Virus record (IMG/VR): IMGVR_UViG_3300033545_000002
Span: 1-64,000 of that record
DNA from: a virus
Reading direction: 5' to 3' (one strand)
DNA length: 64,000 nt
Positions 8,250 through 23,598 of the stretch are shown here, piece by piece. The first letter of the stretch is position 1; the number at the start of each line of letters is the position of its first letter. Made by a program: the position numbers and the translations under genes. The notes below the pieces were generated by a model, which made no database searches, was not told the origin of the DNA, and saw only the letters and a program-made list of their open reading frames with translations.

Positions 8250-8885
8250 TTAACTATTGAATAAAAGACTTGGTAAATCGCCAAGTAAGTCGGCTGAAAT
8301 CGTGTCCGGGCCGTACGAAATCCCATTTAGGACTTTGTCTGTGTGCTGTTTAATCTGGAATCCGCGCGTAGGGATATTCTGATCAGTATTGTACGAAGCC
8401 CAATAACTTTTGAATTTCAGATTAACGAACAATTGGGTGTTCGATAAATTTGTACCGAAGCCGACGTATATTCCTGGCGTGTAGCCTCCGCTGTTGACTT
8501 CTTCCCACCACGCATTGCAATATGCGATGACATCTAAATCACTTGCAGATGTTGCCACTCCTTCAAGGTCAAGAAAAGTACTTACTAATGGCGGCGCTCC
8601 AATTCCTTTTAAATAGGTTACTGCGTATGCGCCCCACTGTTTACCTAATGCTGCCGTCGGTAGCCAATTCGGTAGAGGGCAATGCTGAACGAAATACAAG
8701 GAGAGATATTCAAGGATAGCCTGCATTTCCGGCTGTGTAACATTCCCCGCTGCTAACGCTGGCTCTCTCGGGATATACCTTGAAATACCCAATATGCCAT
8801 TGTCGGAAATCTCCTTTGCTTGGGCACCACTCAGAACTTGGTTAATATCCGCATACGCTCCCGGTATAGCTTGCTTAACTACCAT
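8250..8885 (-). CDS. DUF1906-type glycoside hydrolase-like endolysin
   Basis: A 211-residue single-domain protein with the fold signature of DUF1906 / GH25-like barrels: early GAYADINQV, then a strand ending FLDLEGVA (acidic pair of the active site) near residue 125, IAYCNAWWEEV, GIYVGFG, and YWASYN followed by a Q-H-T strand. Members cleave glycan or are predicted to cut peptidoglycan. It lacks a signal peptide and lies at the end of the lysis cassette behind membrane proteins, so I infer the main lysin role. An alternative is a cell-surface glycan hydrolase. Confidence 0.65.
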   Translation of the reverse strand: MVVKQAIPGAYADINQVLSGAQAKEISDNGILGISRYIPREPALAAGNVTQPEMQAILEYLSLYFVQHCPLPNWLPTAALGKQWGAYAVTYLKGIGAPPLVSTFLDLEGVATSASDLDVIAYCNAWWEEVNSGGYTPGIYVGFGTNLSNTQLFVNLKFKSYWASYNTDQNIPTRGFQIKQHTDKVLNGISYGPDTISADLLGDLPSLLFNS

Positions 8886-8894
8886 AAAATAAAT

Positions 8895-8996
8895 TTATTC
8901 GGACCAAGGTGATAAAACAAAAATCCAGAAAACTGTCGCTGCTATAGCAAAGGCTACGCATAGAGCAATTAAAAAGTATCGATCTTTCTTAGGCAT
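8895..8996 (-). CDS. 33-aa single-span membrane protein
   Basis: Start MPKKDRYFLIALCVAFAIAA, then a hydrophobic stretch to FVLSP and WSE-stop. The start codon directly abuts the stop of the papain-like gene, and the lysin gene follows 9 bases after the stop. A basic N terminus plus one span suggests a small inner-membrane protein, perhaps a holin partner or pinholin-like peptide; this is inferred from position only. Confidence 0.65.
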   Translation of the reverse strand: MPKKDRYFLIALCVAFAIAATVFWIFVLSPWSE

Positions 8997-9743
8997 TTAC
9001 AATTTGATTACCCAGAAGTCCGAGCAAAGATTAGAGAAAAAATAAGCGTAATCCATGTAAAAATACCCGTTGAGACCCCACGATGTCCCCCAACTATTCC
9101 TGACTTTGAAGGCTTGTTTGCTATCATCGTGACCGGCCAACATTACGCAATGGCCGCCTAGTAATTGTTCTGATGCCGTTGGTCTATGCAAAATTCCTGT
9201 TTTTGCCACTTCATCCGATTCAAAGGCGGTGTACACATCGAATCCGAACACAATACCGCGTCCATGCGCCAGTGTCAATTTAAAGCTATCCGCCGGGGCT
9301 CCATCCATGTTGGCGTACGTTCCGATTTCGTTTCCTTTAGCGGACAAATAGGCGGCAGGGGATGGCTGGGTGAGCAACATAGATCGGTCGAACGGCCAAT
9401 CCGTTTCAGGACAGTACCCCCACTTGTGAAGGCCAGAAAGTCCATCGTGGATCATCGCCCCGCCGTCTTGGTTTACATCCCCTTCGAGAACCCGTTCATT
9501 GTAGTAAAGAAAAAGTCTCGAAGGCATGACCAACGGAACTTTAGCATAGCTCATCGATGAAAGTAAAGCCCCTGCAATTCCGTTTCCGGTGCACGAGCTT
9601 GTATCTCCTTGATCAAAACATGGAGGTAACACTGGTTCCAAATCCGAAGTAGCTGGTATCGTAACATCATAAGGGGCTACCATTCCGAACTTTAAATCTT
9701 CGAAATGTTTTGGAGATCGTTTCCAGTTATATACTCTTGGCAT
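8997..9743 (-). CDS. Papain-like (C1A) cysteine protease
   Basis: All the papain landmarks are present in 248 residues: Gln45 and Cys51 in PCFDQGDTSSCTGNG, His198 in GGHCVMLAGHDD, and Asn216 in VRNSWGTSWGLNGYFYM. There is no signal peptide or propeptide of the usual length, so it is the mature core. Phage C1A proteases are uncommon; here it lies within the lysis cassette, 1 base-tight with a mini membrane gene. It could degrade host protein, release virions from glycoprotein layers, or process virion proteins. Domain call is strong; role is inferred. Confidence 0.85.
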   Translation of the reverse strand: MPRVYNWKRSPKHFEDLKFGMVAPYDVTIPATSDLEPVLPPCFDQGDTSSCTGNGIAGALLSSMSYAKVPLVMPSRLFLYYNERVLEGDVNQDGGAMIHDGLSGLHKWGYCPETDWPFDRSMLLTQPSPAAYLSAKGNEIGTYANMDGAPADSFKLTLAHGRGIVFGFDVYTAFESDEVAKTGILHRPTASEQLLGGHCVMLAGHDDSKQAFKVRNSWGTSWGLNGYFYMDYAYFFSNLCSDFWVIKL

Positions 9744-9749
9744 GGCGGG

Positions 9750-10235
9750 TTAGTTTAGCAGGATGCCTATCGTAGCCAGAATGCCGAATTGCTGGTTTTT
9801 GGGCGCATTCGGGTTAAAGGACGGACCGATCTGAATCTCGCTGTTTCCCACCGGGAAAGGATTATGGAAACCGAAAGTCAGACCCAACGTCTCGAACGAT
9901 TGCAGTCCGGATATCGGCAGTGCGCTGTTGATCGGAAACCACGCCGCATTGACTGACCAAATCACGGTCAGGGTTTGGGTAGCATAGTTGTAAGACTGAT
10001 GCTCATACCCAAATTCACCGCCGGAAAGTGCGGATGACGTTCCGTTGAAGGAATAACCGTAGGCCGCAAAGTTCGCCGTAAACCGCCAGGCATTGACAAT
10101 GCTATCCGGTTGAACGGTAGCCCCAAGTTTCAATCCGTGCGAAACTCCCGGTTTCGGTTCCGATTTGAATGGAGATTGAGCACTTGCGCACAATCCGATA
10201 AATAAAGTAAAAAGAGCAATTAAGAGGTATCGCAT
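9750..10235 (-). CDS. Secreted, probably beta-rich protein (161 aa)
   Basis: I start it at the ATG at 10235 (MRYLLIALFTLFIGLCASAQ), a clear Sec signal peptide with cleavage before Gln. The mature part alternates beta strands rich in Gly, Phe and Asn (FTANFAAYGYSFNG, SVNAAWFP, LGLTFGFHNPF, FGILATIGILLN), consistent with a small outer-membrane barrel. It lies between two membrane-protein genes and the papain gene. It may act in outer-membrane disruption or exclusion; no family recognised. Confidence 0.55.
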   Translation of the reverse strand: MRYLLIALFTLFIGLCASAQSPFKSEPKPGVSHGLKLGATVQPDSIVNAWRFTANFAAYGYSFNGTSSALSGGEFGYEHQSYNYATQTLTVIWSVNAAWFPINSALPISGLQSFETLGLTFGFHNPFPVGNSEIQIGPSFNPNAPKNQQFGILATIGILLN

Positions 10236-10246
10236 AAAATTTGTTT

Positions 10247-10903
10247 TTAGTTGATTTCTCCTTCCGGGTGATTTAGTTTTCCTTCCTTTCTCGCTTCTGC
10301 AACAACCCAATTATGGAAATCTTCTTTTTCTTTTTTACTCTTTAATTTCAAATCCACTACTGTCCTCCAATACTCATATCGATTTAGAAGTGTATCGAAT
10401 CTTTCTTTTGAAAATTGTGTTCTACCATTCATCATATCCAATACAGCAAAATAGGAGCTTTTGGCCGCTTCTTTTAATTCAGGCACCGACCAATACCAAA
10501 TACCGGAAGTAATATACTTAGTCGAATCGGCTGGATTCAGATCACAGGCGGTCTGAGCTTTTGCCATGCAACTGACAAAAAGCAATGCAAGTACCAAAGA
10601 TGCCTTACTTGTAAATGGCAATTTCGCCTGTAATTTGGCCGGTGGATTGGCTTGCGGAGGGGTCTGTACAGTCATGAGAGACATAAAAAACGCCACCGAT
10701 GCAGCAATACCAACTGTTTTACTTTCCATCACAGTCAAGGCAGGGGGAAGCGTTACATTCAATGCCGTTAAAAGGGCTGGCAATCCAGAAACGGCTACAA
10801 CTGCCCCGCTGATCCATTGCCATATTTGGAAAAACTTAGGAGACTTAGCCGAAATGCGACCGAATATTTCGATCAAAAAGGCGACTAGAGGATTACTTTG
10901 CAT
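10247..10903 (-). CDS. Multi-span membrane protein with internal lipobox-like segment
   Basis: Two hydrophobic segments occur in the first ~85 residues (WQWISGAVVAVSGLPALLTA and VGIAASVAFFMSLMTV), then a Pro/Ala linker and a third hydrophobic segment ending LVLALLFVSCMAKAQ at ~115. A helical, Lys/Glu-rich domain follows (to residue 218). The first part resembles phage holins. The third segment resembles a lipoprotein or Sec signal, so the gene may join a holin to a spanin-like periplasmic helix. That fusion is an inference. Confidence 0.5.
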   Translation of the reverse strand: MQSNPLVAFLIEIFGRISAKSPKFFQIWQWISGAVVAVSGLPALLTALNVTLPPALTVMESKTVGIAASVAFFMSLMTVQTPPQANPPAKLQAKLPFTSKASLVLALLFVSCMAKAQTACDLNPADSTKYITSGIWYWSVPELKEAAKSSYFAVLDMMNGRTQFSKERFDTLLNRYEYWRTVVDLKLKSKKEKEDFHNWVVAEARKEGKLNHPEGEIN

Positions 10904-10907
10904 AAAA

Positions 10908-11195
10908 TTATTGTTTTGTTGATAGATGATCAGCGGCCATTGTTTCCAGTTTCGTTAACCGGGTAGATAAGTCGTCAATTTTCCTGGATTGTTCAGCGTC
11001 TACTTTATTCACATCTAAAATTGCGCTGGAATTAGCATTGATCAGGGGGATCATTCCAGCGATTTTCTCATCCAGTTGGTTGATGCTAAAAAGTACCCAC
11101 CCGGATAGGGTCATACAAACCGTTAATAGGATAGTATTCAAGTTTAATTGCACGTTCCCGTTCTTTTTTGTCGTCCCGTTTGTAAGTGGTTCCAT
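10908..11195 (-). CDS. Holin-like protein with TM and coiled coil (95 aa)
   Basis: Start at the ATG at 11195 (MEPLTNGTTKKNGNVQLNLN); the frame is open further right but that part belongs to the end of the inserted IS element. One membrane span (NTILLTVCMTLSGWVLFSI) is followed by a coiled-coil tail (EQSRKIDDLSTRLTKLETMA). Single-TM proteins with a heptad tail (XhlA type) occur in many lysis cassettes. The order TM-protein, membrane protein, lysin supports a lysis role. Confidence 0.55.
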   Translation of the reverse strand: MEPLTNGTTKKNGNVQLNLNTILLTVCMTLSGWVLFSINQLDEKIAGMIPLINANSSAILDVNKVDAEQSRKIDDLSTRLTKLETMAADHLSTKQ

Positions 11196-11233
11196 TGTTA
11201 AAGATAGGTATTTTTTATACATGTGCCGTAAAA

Positions 11234-11256
11234 CCCCTATCCCTTTAGGGTAGGGG
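11234..11256. repeat. Left-end subterminal hairpin of the IS element
   Basis: CCCCTA-T-CCC, loop TTTA, GGGTAGGGG: a 9-bp stem with a single bulged T. IS200/IS605 transposases recognise such hairpins in single-stranded DNA, and the bulge is a known specificity feature. Confidence 0.75.
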
Positions 11257-11270
11257 ATGTAAGGCACGTT

Positions 11271-11675
11271 TTAGCCCTGTTCTTCAATATATTTTCGTAT
11301 CGTTTCAGTTGAAGCGTCGCCGGTCGAACAAACAAAATAACCATCCGACCAAAATGTACGCTCCTTCCAAAAATGTTTTTTCAATTCCGTTGCATATTTT
11401 TTCCAGATTCTAAAAGTAGAAAGTTGCTTTAGCTGGTGAACGATTTGAAAAGCGGAAAGCGTTGGCGGAATATCTACTAAAATGTGGATATGGTCAATAT
11501 CGCTCTGCATCGTATCAATCGTAAACCCTTTCTCCTGACTAATTTCAAATAACAACTGCTTCATGTCTTCGTCCAAACTATCTACCAGCAACTTCTTTCT
11601 GTACTTGACTGCAAAAACTATATGCAACTTAATCAAGTATTTGGAATGACTGCTATGGTGGTATTTGGCCTTCAC
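11271..11675 (-). CDS. tnpA: IS200/IS605 Y1 transposase TnpA
   Basis: A 134-residue protein (start GTG at 11675) with the TnpA layout: YHHSSHSKYLIKLHIVFAVKYRK at the start, the HUH motif as DHIHILVDIPP around residue 66, and the catalytic Tyr in DGYFVCSTGDAS near residue 112. It nicks and rejoins single-stranded DNA at the element ends. All key residues are present, so it looks active. A TATATTTG box on the leftward strand at 11687-11680 stands just before the GTG. A longer frame would begin with TTG. Confidence 0.9.
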   Translation of the reverse strand: MKAKYHHSSHSKYLIKLHIVFAVKYRKKLLVDSLDEDMKQLLFEISQEKGFTIDTMQSDIDHIHILVDIPPTLSAFQIVHQLKQLSTFRIWKKYATELKKHFWKERTFWSDGYFVCSTGDASTETIRKYIEEQG

Positions 11676-11679
11676 AAAA

Positions 11680-11727
11680 CAAATATACAATATTTACAGA
11701 AATATATTGAAATGTTTTATATCTTTG
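11680..11727. promoter_or_regulatory. Divergent promoter pair inside the IS element
   Basis: Leftward TATATTTG (11687-11680) and rightward TATCTTTG (11720-11727) both match TAnnTTTG exactly, facing tnpA and the HNH gene. The leftward box ends 4 bases before the GTG of tnpA. No good rightward -33 TTTG is seen; the leftward -33 would be TTTC at 11712-11709. Confidence 0.45.
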
Positions 11728-11760
11728 TAAAAGTGTTTTTTAAAACATTTGGCAATAATA

Positions 11761-12456
11761 ATGATAACGGCACAAAGCGAAATTTCAATAAAGGATAGCT
11801 ACTTGCGAAAAGCAATGTATTCCATATACGATGGTAAATGCTTTTATACTGGTAGAGCAATTCCATTCGATGATATTCATATTGACCATATAATCCCCAA
11901 AGCAAAAGGCGGTAAAGATTGCGTTGAGAATTATGTTTTGTGTTGTGGGTACATAAATTGTAAAAAAAACGATAAGTTAGATTCTCTTTTTGTTGAAAGA
12001 ATTTCTCTAATAAATAAACTCTTGTTTGTAGAAAAGGTGGTTTCTGAATACAATAATATTTGTTTAAATGGAGCAATAGAGGCGAGCATGATAAATATAA
12101 ATGACTTTTTAAGAAATTATAAACTACATACTCATCCAAAAAGAACCTCCTTTGTACAGGGGGCAAAAAGAAACTTGCCGTACATTGAATATAGACCAAT
12201 GGCATCTCCACAAAACGGCAAAAAGGGCTTATCAACGAAAAAGAGGTTCTATTTTGATAAAGATTCATTACAGCAGTATTTTAATAAATTCAAATCGCCA
12301 GAAGAATGGCGTAATACATTAGAGCAATCATGCGGCACGCATCACGAAAGAGATGTAAATGCCGCTCAAAATATTAAGAGCTTCGGGCTTCGGAACAAGC
12401 CTACAGGTGCTAAGCCAGCAATAGTTGGTTTGCCTGCGAAGCCGCTACACCTTTAG
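11761..12456 (+). CDS. HNH nuclease fused to a TnpB C-terminal remnant
   Basis: Start at ATG 11761 (MITAQSEISIKDSYLRKAMY), 231 residues. Residues ~25-70 are an HNH domain: GKCFYTG, then IHIDHIIPKAKGGKDCVENY and CCGYINCKKND. A helical middle (70-188) matches nothing I know. The end, from about residue 190 (SCGTHHERDVNAAQNIKSFG), is the end of a TnpB: the last Cys-Gly of its zinc ribbon and the RuvC-III motif with Asp198. The RuvC-I and -II motifs and the rest of TnpB are missing. So the usual RNA-guided nuclease has been replaced by an HNH enzyme joined to the TnpB tail. The stop lies in the right-end hairpin. Confidence 0.8.
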   Translation: MITAQSEISIKDSYLRKAMYSIYDGKCFYTGRAIPFDDIHIDHIIPKAKGGKDCVENYVLCCGYINCKKNDKLDSLFVERISLINKLLFVEKVVSEYNNICLNGAIEASMININDFLRNYKLHTHPKRTSFVQGAKRNLPYIEYRPMASPQNGKKGLSTKKRFYFDKDSLQQYFNKFKSPEEWRNTLEQSCGTHHERDVNAAQNIKSFGLRNKPTGAKPAIVGLPAKPLHL

Positions 12457-12468
12457 GTTAGCGGTAGT
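12340..12468 (+). ncRNA. Candidate omega-RNA-like right-end transcript
   Basis: In TnpB elements a guide RNA overlaps the tnpB 3' end and right end. Here GGCTTCG at 12386-12392 can pair with CGAAGCC at 12437-12443, next to the right-end hairpin at 12442-12464. The retained TnpB tail covers exactly this DNA. Whether an RNA is made is not known. Confidence 0.3.
12442..12464. repeat. Right-end subterminal hairpin of the IS element
   Basis: CCGCTA-C-ACC, loop TTTA, GGTTAGCGG: a 9-bp stem with one bulged C, matching the left-end hairpin in loop and architecture. The TAG stop of the HNH-TnpB' gene is at 12454-12456, inside it. Confidence 0.75.
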
Positions 12469-14610
12469 TCACAAAGGTGCTATTCGTTGATCCCTCATTA
12501 TGTGCCATCTTATAGGCGAACTTACATTGAATCCAGATACTTGAACTAATACAAGATTTGGTGTACCCTGTATCGAGTATCCGGATTGATGCGTTGATAG
12601 TCCGCTAGAAACATAGGGACTGTTATAGGAAATATATGGCGACCCATACGCATTACCGAATCTGGATAGCATGACTGTTTGCTGACCAACTCCGGTAAAA
12701 TGTTGAACGGTATCGTATGAAAAATAAGATAGGTTAAAAACTCCTGAACTATTTGGGGGCAATGCAAGCGTATCGGCTGTAACGTACGCGGCGGTGGTTG
12801 CTAATATTGAGTGAGAGTATATACTATCCAGTACTACCTTGCCGCCGCTCCCCGGAGAGATTGGTCCGATTGGGATAGACCCACCTACCGTAATGGTAGC
12901 CGTGACAGTTGTTTGTTTGTACTGATCATCCGTTGCGATGATCTGGATAGTATGCGTCCCGGTAGTGAGCCCTGAAATGGTTGTGGTCGCACTATAGGGT
13001 TGAGCGATCGTCGAAGTGGGGCAACCGTGAAGGGTCGTTTCCGATACCCGGATGTTGTTGACCGTGTGGCCACCGGCTGCTGTTATAGTGGGGCTGAAAC
13101 TGGTAGATGTACTCGTTATCGTCTGATTCGACCATCCGGTGACGGTTGGGGGCGCTTCCGAATAGTAGGTATAGGAGCTGCAATAGGTAGCCGTAGGAAG
13201 GGTATCGCAATAGGGGGAGTGACGCGCTACTCCCGCTACATCATTGAAGGGAAAGATCATATCGAGCCCCAGATGACTGCGAGAAGCCGTGTCGTAACTG
13301 TTAGGATAGATACTCTCCGGATTGCCGGAGATATACTGTTGATCATAGACGCCATTAGCCTGAACGCCAGCCTTGTTTCTGCCCAGAGAATGGAGGACAT
13401 GGTTAATATCTTCGGCGATCGTATAACAACCGAAGGTATGTCCAGCATAAACAGCCAGATAAGTGTGGCAGGAATCAAGTAATTTAGCTTGCACAACCCC
13501 GCTTTCCAATGGAACGGGTGTTTGGTCCTGATCCCATGCCCAAGGTGTTTTAGAGGCCCCGTAAAGCGGTGGACTTCCATAGGTATTCCAATGCGGTTTC
13601 GGGTTGATGCCTAAACTGGAACAAACATCATCTCCCCACCCATACAGATAACCGGTATTGAGGATAGCGTAGGTGCAAATATCCCCAAATCCAAAGGAGG
13701 ATATCGATCCGGCCGTCAGGCCTATGTTCGTCATCACATTGGTTGGAGTTGTCGGAGAGCTACCCAGTGTTCCGCACCACGTCTGGTAATTGAATCCCCA
13801 TCCGTATAAATTTCCGTCTGTCCCGAGATAGGCGAACCAGTAGACGCCGAGATCGATTTGTTTAGGAGTGGCGGCCAGCCCGGTCAATTTGTGGAGCGTC
13901 AGGTCCGAAGTCCCATTACCAGTGAAGGAAGAACTATTGCCAGAGGTATAGATTTTCCTTACCCCCGTTCCGTTTTTGGTCAGCACCATCAGGATGGCAT
14001 CCCCCTTGGCGTCGATGATGGTATCCCCTGCATCAAACCCCGTAATCGGAACAAAATAGCCGTTGTCTGTGGTAGGGTTCGAACCATTTCCGCGAATGCC
14101 GCCTTCAAGCAATCCTGCCGCCCATAGGGTGTCGCCCTGCGCCCCGGATTTCCATGCTAGACAAAATGATCCGAACGTATTGGCAGAAGCAAAACACCCT
14201 GTAATGTTGTTGAAGACATGGCCCATACTGTCTTGTGTGACTGCGGTAAACTGACTTTGATTGCCGGCCGATCCACCCAGCCCCAGAGAATGGTTGTCGT
14301 TGATGCCCGTTCCGTATAAAATACCTTTTCGAATGGCAAACTGACTATGCAGGCACGACGACCCTCCGGTCACGCTATCCAGTGTCGCACCAGAACCTGC
14401 AATCTGTCCCGGACAAAGAAGGCCCGGCTTTCCATTGGTTCCAGGGGAGCTATTTCCAACTGCTCCGCCGATGTTGCCGCTTCCGAATCGCATGTTCACG
14501 ATATCGGCGTATCCGCACTGATATTCACCGGGCCAGACGATATATTGAGGGGATTGGGCAGACACGCAAGTTGCCAGAAAGATCAACGCGATGGTCAATA
14601 GTTTTCTCAT
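12469..14610 (-). CDS. Sec-exported RCC1-like propeller and Ig-like protein (713 aa)
   Basis: The start at 14610 (MRKLLTIALIFLATCVSAQ) shares ATGA with the stop of the preceding gene and gives a clean signal peptide. Residues ~95-350 contain RCC1-type units (GILYGTGINDNHSLGLGG, NLYGWGFNYQTWCGTLG, GYLYGWGDDVCSSLG), suggesting a beta propeller. An Ig/FN3-like domain lies at ~490-570 (PPTVTGWSNQTITS...TGTHTIQIIATDD). The C terminus is beta-rich. It is probably a receptor- or surface-binding fibre protein, but the signal peptide would send it out of the cell. Its stop lies at the IS right end. Confidence 0.65.
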   Translation of the reverse strand: MRKLLTIALIFLATCVSAQSPQYIVWPGEYQCGYADIVNMRFGSGNIGGAVGNSSPGTNGKPGLLCPGQIAGSGATLDSVTGGSSCLHSQFAIRKGILYGTGINDNHSLGLGGSAGNQSQFTAVTQDSMGHVFNNITGCFASANTFGSFCLAWKSGAQGDTLWAAGLLEGGIRGNGSNPTTDNGYFVPITGFDAGDTIIDAKGDAILMVLTKNGTGVRKIYTSGNSSSFTGNGTSDLTLHKLTGLAATPKQIDLGVYWFAYLGTDGNLYGWGFNYQTWCGTLGSSPTTPTNVMTNIGLTAGSISSFGFGDICTYAILNTGYLYGWGDDVCSSLGINPKPHWNTYGSPPLYGASKTPWAWDQDQTPVPLESGVVQAKLLDSCHTYLAVYAGHTFGCYTIAEDINHVLHSLGRNKAGVQANGVYDQQYISGNPESIYPNSYDTASRSHLGLDMIFPFNDVAGVARHSPYCDTLPTATYCSSYTYYSEAPPTVTGWSNQTITSTSTSFSPTITAAGGHTVNNIRVSETTLHGCPTSTIAQPYSATTTISGLTTGTHTIQIIATDDQYKQTTVTATITVGGSIPIGPISPGSGGKVVLDSIYSHSILATTAAYVTADTLALPPNSSGVFNLSYFSYDTVQHFTGVGQQTVMLSRFGNAYGSPYISYNSPYVSSGLSTHQSGYSIQGTPNLVLVQVSGFNVSSPIRWHIMRDQRIAPL

Positions 14611-14915
14611 TGGCAGGGACATTTAAAGTACTTGTTTGGGTTCATGAACCTGAGATTCCGCTTCTGTTTTTTGGCGTCATACCTCTGCGGATCCCATTGC
14701 TGATAATACTCGAAAGCCATCTCCCTGAAATGTCTGGCTCGCCCATCGTAGAAGACAAAACTGTCTATTTCTCCAGCGTTCCGTGCGCAGATAGCCCGGC
14801 AGCGGTTAATGAAGAAGCTGTCTGTGGTCCGGTGCAGATTACACTGGACGCTATCAGTTTTCTGCGCCATCGCAGCCAGCGGGAGGAAAAAGAATATAGT
14901 TATAACGTATTTCAT
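14607..14915 (-). CDS. Secreted Cys-containing protein (102 aa)
   Basis: MKYVITIFFFLPLAAMAQ is a Sec signal peptide. The mature part has six Cys, including CRAIC in the middle and CPC at the end, which may form disulfides in the periplasm, and a charged C-terminal half (RYDAKKQKRNLRF). ATGA overlap couples it to the RCC1-like gene. No family recognised; perhaps a partner or chaperone of the fibre proteins. Confidence 0.55.
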   Translation of the reverse strand: MKYVITIFFFLPLAAMAQKTDSVQCNLHRTTDSFFINRCRAICARNAGEIDSFVFYDGRARHFREMAFEYYQQWDPQRYDAKKQKRNLRFMNPNKYFKCPCQ

Positions 14916-20828: not shown

Positions 20829-20869
20829 CTTTGTCCCTACAAATGAAGATATTCTTTGTCCCTACAAAT
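20829..20869. repeat. Two 16-bp direct repeats, each a small inverted repeat
   Basis: CTTTGTCCCTACAAAT occurs at 20829-20844 and 20854-20869, 25 bases apart. Each copy contains TTTGT-CCCT-ACAAA, a 5-bp inverted repeat. They lie right after the stop of the ATP-grasp gene and before the CHAP-like gene, where they could be an operator, an RNA element or a recombination scar. Confidence 0.8.
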
Positions 20870-22272
20870 CAGAAATCGCCTGATATTAGTTTCTTGTCTT
20901 TCAGAAATTGAAGTCTATTTAGCACGCACTTTTCATTTTCCTTAGACAGAAAATCCGATTTAGGACGATAGTAAATCCCTTTCAAGGAAAAGTAATGAAG
21001 ACTGTTGTATAAAGAGGTCACGGCCTCCTTAACGGTTTGGCCTCTACCAACCACATATCCCAATGGGGCCGAGCTAAACCATCTGTACCCTATATTTACC
21101 ATAGCATCTTTATCGGGATGCCTTTTGATTTGATATAAGAAGAAATCCTGTTCGTTCTCGGAAATCGTCATGGGAATGTCACCTTGTGGTAATCCCGGCG
21201 CTTTATGATCGGCATCCAATGTATAAAGGGCCAGCGAAGCCCCAACATCATAATTATACGGATTACCGCCTTCTTTTAGCCTTATAAAGTAATACCCAAT
21301 GTTCCCGTTTTCGTCCATAGAGGCCGATAATTCAGAAAATATTCCACCCCATCCCCATCTACATCCAGCGAATTCCGTAAAATACAAATCAGTTCCATCA
21401 CTTAAAATTCCAGCATCCCTGATATAAATTCCTTTTCTTTTTTTAGCCTCTTTATACACTACTTCCGGGAATATTATTTTATTGATGGCGTCATCCAAAG
21501 GGATATTGATAACTATATTTTCATTCCCTCCGGTCTGAGGTCCAATATCGAGAGGGCCGAACATCCTGGTTTCGATCTCAATTTGAGAATAGATCGGTTC
21601 GCCATCGTAAAATACCATTTGAGGGGTGAATTCTATAGGGTTCATTATTTTTTCTTCCGCCATAATTTTACCCTTCTCGAAGTCCTTCCTGTTTTCTTCA
21701 AGCTCTGATATGACTTGATTGCGGCCCATCTCCAAATCATCCTTGTCGGGCACAAGCGTTTCTGCAAAATTACCGTCGCTCTTGATGACCCATAATTTAT
21801 CTGACTCTTTTACAAACTTAATAACGTCGTCAACCCTCTTAAACTCCTGTGTCTCTTTTAGTTTTACGCCTTTATAATGTTTTTTCAGAAAGTCCTTTGC
21901 CATCTTTCGGTCCTTCTCCATTAAATAATCGTACTCCATAGGGAAAAGACCATGCTCATAGCCCATTTTTAAAACTTGTTCGGATATCTTATACTGATTG
22001 TTGTAATCAAATACGATAAACCAATCGTCCTTATTTTTCTGATATTTTAAAAATGTCAGCGTAGATTCTAATGAATACTTTTCAATGAACCCGTCGTATA
22101 TTGACAGCCTTCTTTTTCTGCATTCCATCGCCTCGGCGTCATTAATCCAAGATGAAACACCGAGAGATGATGCATTGCGTATTTGGCAAACTCTTACTTC
22201 GTACCCTTCCAGCAATAGTTTTCTGGCAACACTTAGTATTGCGCAGTCGTAAGTAAAGAAGCAAAAACGCAT
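20869..22272 (-). CDS. ATP-grasp ligase, PurD-like
   Basis: A 467-residue protein with an N-terminal Rossmann-type part (MRFCFFTYDCAILSVARKLL) and an ATP-grasp region: LWVIKSDGNFAET, GKIMAEEKIMNPIEFTPQMV, and DLYFTEFAGCRWGWGGIFSE near residue 315. It most resembles phosphoribosylamine-glycine ligase. ATP-grasp enzymes join a carboxylate to an amine through an acyl phosphate. The E-x-N-x-R metal motif of PurD is changed to EFAGCR, so the substrate probably differs. No other purine genes are nearby. The next genes, an S51 peptidase and an Asp/Glu racemase, suggest peptide or amino-acid ligation. Confidence 0.6.
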   Translation of the reverse strand: MRFCFFTYDCAILSVARKLLLEGYEVRVCQIRNASSLGVSSWINDAEAMECRKRRLSIYDGFIEKYSLESTLTFLKYQKNKDDWFIVFDYNNQYKISEQVLKMGYEHGLFPMEYDYLMEKDRKMAKDFLKKHYKGVKLKETQEFKRVDDVIKFVKESDKLWVIKSDGNFAETLVPDKDDLEMGRNQVISELEENRKDFEKGKIMAEEKIMNPIEFTPQMVFYDGEPIYSQIEIETRMFGPLDIGPQTGGNENIVINIPLDDAINKIIFPEVVYKEAKKRKGIYIRDAGILSDGTDLYFTEFAGCRWGWGGIFSELSASMDENGNIGYYFIRLKEGGNPYNYDVGASLALYTLDADHKAPGLPQGDIPMTISENEQDFFLYQIKRHPDKDAMVNIGYRWFSSAPLGYVVGRGQTVKEAVTSLYNSLHYFSLKGIYYRPKSDFLSKENEKCVLNRLQFLKDKKLISGDF

Positions 22273-22277
22273 GATTT

Positions 22278-22901
22278 TTAATTTTGAAGTAATTCAATCT
22301 TTTTACCCTCAAACCACAATGCCATATTATCATTCAAAAAAAGTATTGGCAGTTTATTTCTCGGTAATTTATCCATATTTCTTTTTGTGGACGGAATATA
22401 GTCTTTTTCCTGAGCATGGCACATAATATAAAAGGGGGACAACCCAATTCCATCCATATCCTTTAACTTTCCTACCATTCCGGCCTCTTGTTCATCTTCA
22501 TCATCGCAGGCAAATGAGATATTTGGAGCCATAATCATAGACCCTGCACTTGTGCCTGTATAAATGATCTGATTATTATTAATAGCGTTTTTAATCACCA
22601 TAAACATTTTTTTATCCTTCAACAGTTTTAGGATATATAAAGCACTCCCGCCACAAATGTGTAAAATATCGAATTCTTTCATTCTTTTCTTAAACTCAAC
22701 GCTCGTTATTCTCCTAAAATCGACATCCTCTACCTCAAAACCGTGAGACAAAAATGCTTTTCTATCCTTATTTACCCATCTTTTACTTTTAAATGGATCA
22801 GCAGGGTTAGCAACAAATAACACCCTCGAATTATTTATACCTGCTCTTAGCACGAACAAATCAATAGTATCAGATAGCGTTGAGGCTAGGAACATTCTCA
22901 T
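22278..22901 (-). CDS. Peptidase S51 family (PepE/cyanophycinase-like)
   Basis: The 207-residue protein has the S51 nucleophile elbow YTGTSAGSM (Ser118), HICGGSALYIL before it, acidic residues at ~132-139, and His162 in FYIMCHAQEKD. The S51 family contains alpha-aspartyl dipeptidase and cyanophycinase, both of which cut bonds next to Asp. All catalytic residues appear intact. It overlaps the racemase gene by 32 bases and is followed by the ATP-grasp gene 5 bases later, so the three act together. Confidence 0.75.
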   Translation of the reverse strand: MRMFLASTLSDTIDLFVLRAGINNSRVLFVANPADPFKSKRWVNKDRKAFLSHGFEVEDVDFRRITSVEFKKRMKEFDILHICGGSALYILKLLKDKKMFMVIKNAINNNQIIYTGTSAGSMIMAPNISFACDDEDEQEAGMVGKLKDMDGIGLSPFYIMCHAQEKDYIPSTKRNMDKLPRNKLPILFLNDNMALWFEGKKIELLQN

Positions 22902-23598
22902 ATAGAAAATCAGTTACCTTGTTTAATAAAATGAACCCAGGATCGATAATTGGTATGTCTACATCCTTCTGCTTAATTACCAGAGGCAATTCGGTACAGC
23001 CCAACACAATAGCTTGCGCCCCGTTGCTTTTGAGAGATTTAATGAAAAACTCCATTGTTTCCCTTTCTTCTTTACCAGACTTACCGCTTTGAACAGACAA
23101 GATTATTTCGTTAATTAATCCCTGCTCATACGGAATCCCAAGAGAATGACACTTAACCCCATTTTCTTCAAACCTATTCTTATAAATCTCAGACCTGTTA
23201 GTGCTTTCAGTACTTATCAGCCCAATGGAATGATACCCTGCGTTTTTGACATGATCGACGCATTCATTTATCAGGTTTAGTATAGGTATGAAAGTATTGA
23301 ATTGTAAATACTCATACACAATATGAGCCGTGTTGCAAGCTATGACTATGTAATCAACCTTTAAATATTCCATGTTTCTGATCGCATCCAACAAACTTTT
23401 CTTAACGGCTTCTTTATCCTCAATGCCCCTTTCGCTCCATCCTCCCATTGATAAACTATGGATATACATTTCTGGGTATTGCTCATCTTGGGTCAGTTGA
23501 TATTTCTTTTCAAGGATATTCAATATCATCCTGTACCAATTGCAACTGGCTGACGGACCCATTCCTCCTAAAATCCCCAATTTTTTAACATTGTTCAT
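22870..23598 (-). CDS. Aspartate/glutamate racemase family
   Basis: 242 residues starting MNNVKKLGILGGMGPSASCN. The two catalytic Cys of the family are both present: VIACNTAH (Cys88) and VLGCTELPLV (Cys201). These enzymes interconvert L- and D-Asp or D-Glu without a cofactor by a two-base mechanism. Which amino acid is used cannot be told. Its ATG overlaps the stop of the upstream virion-type gene (23595-23598), and it precedes an S51 peptidase and an ATP-grasp ligase. A phage racemase could supply D-amino acids to modify peptides or cell wall. Confidence 0.8.
   Translation of the reverse strand: MNNVKKLGILGGMGPSASCNWYRMILNILEKKYQLTQDEQYPEMYIHSLSMGGWSERGIEDKEAVKKSLLDAIRNMEYLKVDYIVIACNTAHIVYEYLQFNTFIPILNLINECVDHVKNAGYHSIGLISTESTNRSEIYKNRFEENGVKCHSLGIPYEQGLINEIILSVQSGKSGKEERETMEFFIKSLKSNGAQAIVLGCTELPLVIKQKDVDIPIIDPGFILLNKVTDFLYENVPSLNAI

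What the first reader, a model, noticed from the sequence alone, without database searches (positions are those of the whole stretch)
11221..12468. IS200/IS605 element where TnpB is replaced by an HNH nuclease fused to the TnpB tail
Seen: a complete-looking Y1 TnpA, both end hairpins, and a 231-aa protein with an HNH domain at residues ~25-70 and, from residue ~190, the exact end of a TnpB (SCGTHHERDVNAAQNI, keeping the last zinc-ribbon Cys and the RuvC-III Asp). Known: TnpB is an RNA-guided nuclease of the Cas12 ancestor type, and IscB joins RuvC and HNH. Inferred: recombination swapped the TnpB body for an HNH enzyme, and the tail was kept because its DNA also encodes the guide-RNA scaffold and right end. 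This would be a distinct nuclease layout for this IS family.
Basis: partly seen in the sequence, partly recalled or inferred. Interest (0 to 1): 0.88.

Follow-up and report, generated by a model that had tools for sequence, protein, structure and literature searches.

The report
Phage IS605 with endonuclease replacing TnpB
A small jumping gene in a bacterial virus has lost the body of its usual RNA-guided DNA-cutting enzyme (TnpB) and carries a different DNA-cutting enzyme gene in that place, while keeping the last bit of the old gene that doubles as the guide-RNA scaffold and the element's right end; related virus elements show the same kind of takeover by other DNA cutters.

Summary
Window 11220-12472 is a complete 1,253-bp IS200/IS605 element in an 86-kb phage of Bacteroidota type, inserted 3' of TTTATA within the last codons of a phage gene. 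It has a Y1 TnpA, left and right hairpins, and a 231-aa ORF at the tnpB position: an HNH domain (residues 27-72), a middle with no detectable TnpB homology, and a TnpB tail (residues 188-216) whose DNA is 86% identical over 81 nt to the end of intact tnpB genes. A covariance model built only from five TnpB-bearing relatives matches the retained DNA full length (103 bits; 62 without base pairs), so the guide-RNA scaffold plus right end survives.

I found no second copy of this exact fusion, but it is not an isolated oddity. Among 90 distinct related phage TnpA elements, four others carry endonuclease genes: HNH-type before tnpB (two), a homing-type nuclease replacing the 5' two-thirds of tnpB, and GIY-YIG inside tnpA.

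Best explanation: homing-type endonuclease genes invade phage IS605 elements. Here one took tnpB's start position and deleted its body; the tail stayed as guide-RNA/right-end DNA. An RNA-guided HNH-TnpB enzyme is unlikely. New variant of a known kind.

The parts
11214..11219 (+). TTTATA target motif flanking the left end (would be the TAM of a TnpB)
   Evidence: same motif directly left of the element in L002, L068, L069, L148, L194, L196, L201, L205
11220..12472 (.). whole IS200/IS605 element, 1,253 bp
   Evidence: boundaries by comparison with relatives; joining the flanks restores a natural gene end ...RIAPFIKNTYL-stop followed by the ATG of the next gene
11221..11269 (.). left-end imperfect hairpin
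   Evidence: fold -27 kcal/mol, z -6.3; 72% identical over 149 nt to the left end of L002
11271..11690 (-). tnpA, Y1 (HUH) transposase, 139 aa from TTG
   Evidence: PF01797 E 1.8e-36, NF033573 E 6e-39
11720..11727 (+). TATCTTTG, resembles the Bacteroidota -7 box TAnnTTTG; possible promoter of the HNH ORF
   Evidence: sequence reading; consensus from general knowledge, not tested
11761..12456 (+). 231-aa ORF: HNH endonuclease body fused in frame to the TnpB tail
11839..11976 (+). HNH domain, residues 27-72
   Evidence: PF13395 E 7.1e-9; PF14279 E 9.6e-9
12322..12408 (+). TnpB-derived tail, residues 188-216 (SCGTHHERDVNAAQNIKSFGLRNKPTG and neighbours)
   Evidence: PF07282 E 3.9e-4; DNA 12325-12405 86% identical to intact tnpB ends in L002 and G512
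12331..12472 (+). reRNA (omega RNA) scaffold plus right end
   Evidence: covariance model from five TnpB-bearing relatives without the window: 102.9 bits, E 4.3e-23, positions 1-149 of 149; 62 bits without base pairs
12385..12402 (+). scaffold hairpin P2
12404..12436 (+). scaffold hairpin P3/P4; pairs kept with different bases, but the GUGA/GUGC internal loop seen in the relatives is missing
12438..12470 (+). right-end hairpin
12472..14622 (-). 717-aa phage gene whose last codons are interrupted; its present stop codon lies inside the right end of the element

Best explanation
This is a TnpA-mobile IS200/IS605 element on a phage in which a free-standing, homing-type HNH endonuclease gene has taken over the tnpB position. 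The HNH gene came in at or near the tnpB start (as in L121/L201), and recombination or deletion then removed nearly all of tnpB, joining the HNH reading frame to the last 29-44 codons. What stayed is the part of tnpB DNA that also encodes the reRNA scaffold and leads into the right end. Shown: the anatomy, homology of tail and both ends to TnpB-bearing elements, intact scaffold fold, insertion site, and recurrence of endonuclease genes in related elements. Inferred: the HNH protein cuts DNA as an ordinary protein-guided endonuclease; TnpA still moves the element; HNH cutting of element-free DNA during co-infection could copy it by repair, a protein-guided stand-in for TnpB's retention/drive role; the peptide tail itself has no function beyond ending the frame.
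For: Full TnpB beside TnpA in 71 of 90 distinct related phage elements, and an intact tnpB with the same tail DNA and left end in L002/G512. Endonuclease genes in four other elements of the set: L121/L201 HNH + NUMOD1/I-HmuI-like domain overlapping the tnpB start; L092 HNH-like (phrog_1035, phrog_3118) overlapping the tnpB start; L148/L183 a 277-aa zinc-finger/resolvase-type nuclease replacing tnpB up to model position 268 with the rest of TnpB and the right end kept; L205 GIY-YIG + NUMOD3 inside tnpA. The HNH of the window matches phage HNH families (phrog_1035 E 3.6e-15; phrog_2118 E 1.5e-12). GC is 32% in the HNH body and 50% in the tail. Scaffold model matches full length.
Against: No close relative of the HNH body was found in 396 Bacteroidota genomes, IMG/VR, phages or plasmids, so its free-standing origin is by family resemblance only, and its natural end is unknown. 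It has none of the usual NUMOD domains of homing enzymes. Only one copy of this exact fusion is known, from a virus contig. No homing site or activity can be shown from sequence.
Confidence: 0.62

Rival explanations
1. The element is a TnpB-less derivative whose intact reRNA is used in trans by a TnpB of a co-resident element (host chromosome or co-infecting phage), so guide-directed cutting of the empty site persists; the HNH gene is a passenger.
For: The scaffold is intact and the phage flank would supply the guide; bacteria carrying this element family have TnpBs with nearly the same tail; no other TnpB is in the 86-kb phage record.
Against: The GUGA/GUGC internal loop shared by the TnpB-bearing scaffolds is missing in the window; the host and its TnpB are unknown; the right-end hairpin is kept anyway for TnpA.
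Confidence: 0.15
2. The HNH-TnpB-tail protein is a new RNA-guided nuclease that binds its own right-end RNA.
For: Frame is open across the join; reRNA scaffold is encoded in the same transcript; its HNH is also similar to the HNH of Cas9/IscB.
Against: Lacks REC/WED/RuvC-I/II of TnpB and RRXRR/RuvC of IscB; 17-29 retained residues are not an RNA-binding module; related elements show unrelated endonucleases placed in other ways.
Confidence: 0.05
3. Dead or chance product: a decaying element or assembly chimera with no function for the fusion ORF.
For: Single copy, from a virus contig; the structure prediction is uninformative (pLDDT 32).
Against: TnpA open, both ends and target motif intact, clean insertion site, HNH motif intact, scaffold far more stable than shuffles, unlike the TnpB-less remnant in L299 (z -0.3); analogous insertions in other contigs (L148, L121, L092, L205).
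Confidence: 0.15

Closest known systems
IS200/IS605 family elements with tnpA and tnpB (ISDra2, ISHp608 type)
   Same: Y1 TnpA, imperfect end hairpins, insertion 3' of a short T-rich motif, reRNA at the end of tnpB running into the right end (PMC8612924)
   Different: TnpB body absent; HNH endonuclease ORF in its place
OMEGA nucleases TnpB / IscB / IshB
   Same: keeps the last TnpB residues and scaffold; HNH domain similar to that of IscB and Cas9
   Different: no complete RuvC, no RRXRR or PLMP part, no TnpB REC/WED; not a member of any of them
Free-standing phage homing endonuclease genes (HNH, GIY-YIG)
   Same: small HNH ORF of phage type placed inside another mobile element; comparable genes with NUMOD domains sit in related elements
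   Different: no NUMOD domain detected in the window protein; homing activity and target not known
HEG-bearing group I introns and IStrons (PMC4227781)
   Same: precedent for a mobile endonuclease gene invading another mobile element, and for modular chimeras of IS605 elements
   Different: no group I intron here (no Rfam hit); endonuclease sits in the IS itself

Membership tests
IS200/IS605 element | Y1 HUH transposase | tested here: met
   PF01797 E 1.8e-36, NF033573 E 6e-39
IS200/IS605 element | imperfect hairpins at both ends and insertion 3' of a fixed short motif without target duplication | tested here: met
IS200/IS605 element | transposition by TnpA | not testable with these tools
   needs an excision or transposition assay
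TnpB | complete RuvC (I, II, III) with REC/WED | tested here: not met
   only residues 184-216 match the end of the TnpB profile, positions 334-366 of 383
TnpB | reRNA scaffold overlapping the gene end and right end | tested here: met
   covariance model hit 12331-12472, 102.9 bits
IscB / IshB | HNH domain | tested here: met
   PF13395; NF040563 aligns only over the HNH part, 25.8 bits against a cut-off of 175
IscB / IshB | RRXRR/RuvC (IscB) or PLMP part (IscB, IshB) | tested here: not met
   no RRXRR hit in P0001, whereas IscB/IsrB-like partners in L126 and L097 hit it; no PLMP motif in the sequence
Homing endonuclease gene | nuclease domain of a homing superfamily | tested here: met
   HNH
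Homing endonuclease gene | cleavage of the element-free allele and copying by repair | not testable with these tools
   no activity data; no empty-site relative found
IStron | group I intron at the 5' end | tested here: not met
   no Rfam match up to E 1 in 10000-14000

The most novel reading that the evidence does not exclude
The HNH protein has functionally replaced TnpB as the element's retention/drive nuclease, using the kept right-end RNA (either bound by the fusion protein itself or served to a TnpB in trans), so that an IS200/IS605 element has switched nuclease while keeping its guide RNA.
Probability: 0.08. Interest if true: 0.9.

Novelty: new variant of a known kind. Interest (0 to 1): 0.52.

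Why it matters
TnpB is thought to act like a homing endonuclease for its transposon. Phage elements in which real protein-guided endonucleases of several families sit at, or replace, tnpB would be natural tests of that idea: one can ask whether any cutter can do TnpB's job. They also show which part of tnpB the element cannot lose: the DNA that is guide-RNA scaffold and right end. I found no description of this in the open-access papers that could be searched; subscription journals were not covered.

Tried and rejected
A TnpB remnant in the middle of the HNH protein: pairwise scores slightly above shuffles for two of four TnpBs (7 and 11 of 200 shuffles as good), but profile and hhalign gave nothing convincing. 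Structure prediction from a single sequence: pLDDT 32, useless, so no fold search. Exact copies of the fusion in IMG/VR, GTDB contigs, phages, plasmids: only tails or generic HNH. An empty site in a related phage: no relative of the 717-aa gene found. Similarity between the window HNH and the L092 HNH-like insert: none by BLASTP, though both hit phrog_1035. Exact search for the conserved 18-mer in IMG/VR: none. First covariance model attempt failed on string length.

Full report
Observation. TnpA on the minus strand (11271-11690) is a full Y1 transposase. The plus-strand ORF 11761-12456 gives 231 aa with an HNH domain at 27-72 (E 7e-9) and a TnpB end at 188-216. The tail is not a chance resemblance. 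Pfam's TNB domain finds it in a full-library scan (E 3.9e-4, only 17 residues and below the curated cut-off), it is 85% identical over 27 residues to an intact TnpB in a Chitinophagaceae MAG, and the DNA is 86% identical over 81 nt to three intact tnpB copies in two genomes. Residues 75-189 have no convincing TnpB similarity.

Boundaries and host. The window is part of an 86-kb virus record; the large terminase-like protein matches Cellulophaga and Flavobacterium phages, so the host is probably a member of Bacteroidota (inference). Comparison of left and right ends of L002, L068, L069, L148, L194, L196, L201 and L205 puts the left end directly 3' of TTTATA and, where the right end is held, the right end at TTCAC, hence 11220-12472. 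Joining the two flanks restores an uninterrupted end for the 717-aa phage gene (...RIAPFIKNTYL-stop) followed by the ATG of the next gene. The insertion therefore changed only the last few residues of that gene. No related phage with an empty site was found.

Guide-RNA scaffold. In ISDra2 the reRNA is about 150 nt, matching the end of tnpB and the right end, plus about 16 nt of flank (PMC8612924). The DNA kept here from the join to the right end is about 148 nt. Four of the TnpB-bearing relatives and the window each fold into the same series of hairpins between the conserved GGCTT hairpin and the right end, with different bases in the P3 and right-end stems; the fifth relative does so too in most of its parts. 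A covariance model built from the five relatives alone finds the window at 12331-12472 over its full length with 102.9 bits, against 62 bits for the same alignment without base pairs. So the scaffold is kept in fold as well as in sequence. One reservation: the GUGA/GUGC internal loop in P4, present in all the other scaffolds of this type that I read, is absent in the window. Whether the RNA still serves a TnpB is unknown. The right-end hairpin would be kept for TnpA in any case.

Relatives. Three scans of IMG/VR with TnpA gave 166 loci with TnpA in 90 clusters at 97% nucleotide identity; 71 have a full TnpB beside TnpA, and several of the rest are cut by contig ends or have IscB-like partners. 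In four clusters an endonuclease gene lies in the element. L121/L201: 230-aa HNH with NUMOD1 and I-HmuI-like domains, its end overlapping the start of a full tnpB, with a 24-residue copy of the TnpB start upstream. L092: 161-aa HNH-like protein (phrog_1035 E 3.3e-14; no Pfam hit) overlapping the tnpB start. L148/L183: 277-aa protein with zinc-finger-like repeats and a resolvase/endonuclease-type C-terminal part, followed by a TnpB remnant starting at model position 268 and an intact right end. L205: 234-aa GIY-YIG with NUMOD3, splitting tnpA. Together with the window these are five elements and at least three nuclease types. L299 is a different kind of relic: scaffold and right end alone, no tnpA, no tnpB, fold no better than shuffles over the part tested.

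Mechanism. The pattern fits homing-type endonuclease genes invading a phage-borne transposon, as has been argued for endonuclease genes invading group I introns, by cutting within the element or by cutting near its insertion site followed by illegitimate recombination (discussion of PMC4227781). In the window the invader sits where tnpB starts, about 70 nt from the tnpA start, and has displaced all but the end of tnpB. The HNH body has 32% GC and the tail 50%, consistent with two origins. The in-frame tail need not mean anything for the protein: if the HNH stop was lost in the join, translation runs into the tnpB end. What the HNH enzyme cuts, and whether it helps the element spread during co-infection, is inference. 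TnpB has been reported to act as a drive for IS200/605 elements in plasmids (PMC11870625), so a protein-guided nuclease in the same place could in principle do a similar job.

Against an RNA-guided fusion enzyme. The protein has no RuvC-I/II, REC or WED of TnpB and no RRXRR of IscB, and RuvC-III without the other two is not an active site (established knowledge). I give this 5%.

Novelty. IS200/IS605 elements, TnpB tails and phage HNH genes are all known. A TnpB position taken over by a protein-guided endonuclease, with scaffold and right end kept, was not found in nine searches of the open-access library; that library lacks most subscription papers, so absence there is weak evidence. I call it a new variant of a known kind.

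Noticed in passing
L148 1211-2990 (IMGVR_UViG_3300004805_000021): IS605 element in which a 277-aa zinc-finger/resolvase-type endonuclease gene replaces the 5' two-thirds of tnpB; the remnant TnpB and right end are kept. Best independent parallel to the window.
   Followed up: yes
L121 449-2923 and L201 1440-3914 (same contig): HNH endonuclease with NUMOD1/I-HmuI-like domains between tnpA and a complete tnpB, with a short duplicate of the tnpB start before it.
   Followed up: partly
L205 680-1900: GIY-YIG + NUMOD3 endonuclease gene splitting tnpA of a phage IS605 element.
   Followed up: partly
L092 275-2878: HNH-like endonuclease (phrog_1035) overlapping the start of a divergent tnpB.
   Followed up: partly
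L299 4914-5061 (minus): Solo reRNA scaffold plus right end in a phage intergenic region, without tnpA, tnpB or left end; 125 bits with the scaffold model. Probably a relic, but a solo guide RNA is possible.
   Followed up: partly
L194 2384-3372, L196 2836-3405, L204 187-741: Passenger ORFs of different sequence between tnpA and tnpB that share an N-terminal stretch like (L/V)D(L/F)KKYIxxIIxEE; no Pfam hit for those of L194 and L196.
   Followed up: no
L116 1783-2391: Fic/DOC protein (PF02661) between tnpA and tnpB of a phage IS605 element.
   Followed up: no
L126 1098-2504, L130 293-1606, L103 1178-2293, L236 2227-3537, L097 1393-2505: IscB/IsrB-like partners next to a related TnpA in phage contigs instead of TnpB (RRXRR hit checked for L126 and L097; HNH hit in L126, none in L097).
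   Followed up: partly
L238 1155-2096: HNH_3 + NUMOD4 homing-type endonuclease gene abutting the right end of a TnpA-TnpB element on the opposite strand.
   Followed up: no
window 20869-23598 (minus): Phage gene run with Asp/Glu racemase (PF01177 E 3e-34), peptidase S51 (E 2e-23) and a 467-aa protein without Pfam hit that looks like an ATP-grasp ligase by eye; perhaps a D-aspartate or cell-wall module.
   Followed up: no
window 8250-9743 (minus): Rv2525c-like glycoside hydrolase-like protein next to a papain-like protease, probable lysis or host-wall genes of the phage.
   Followed up: no
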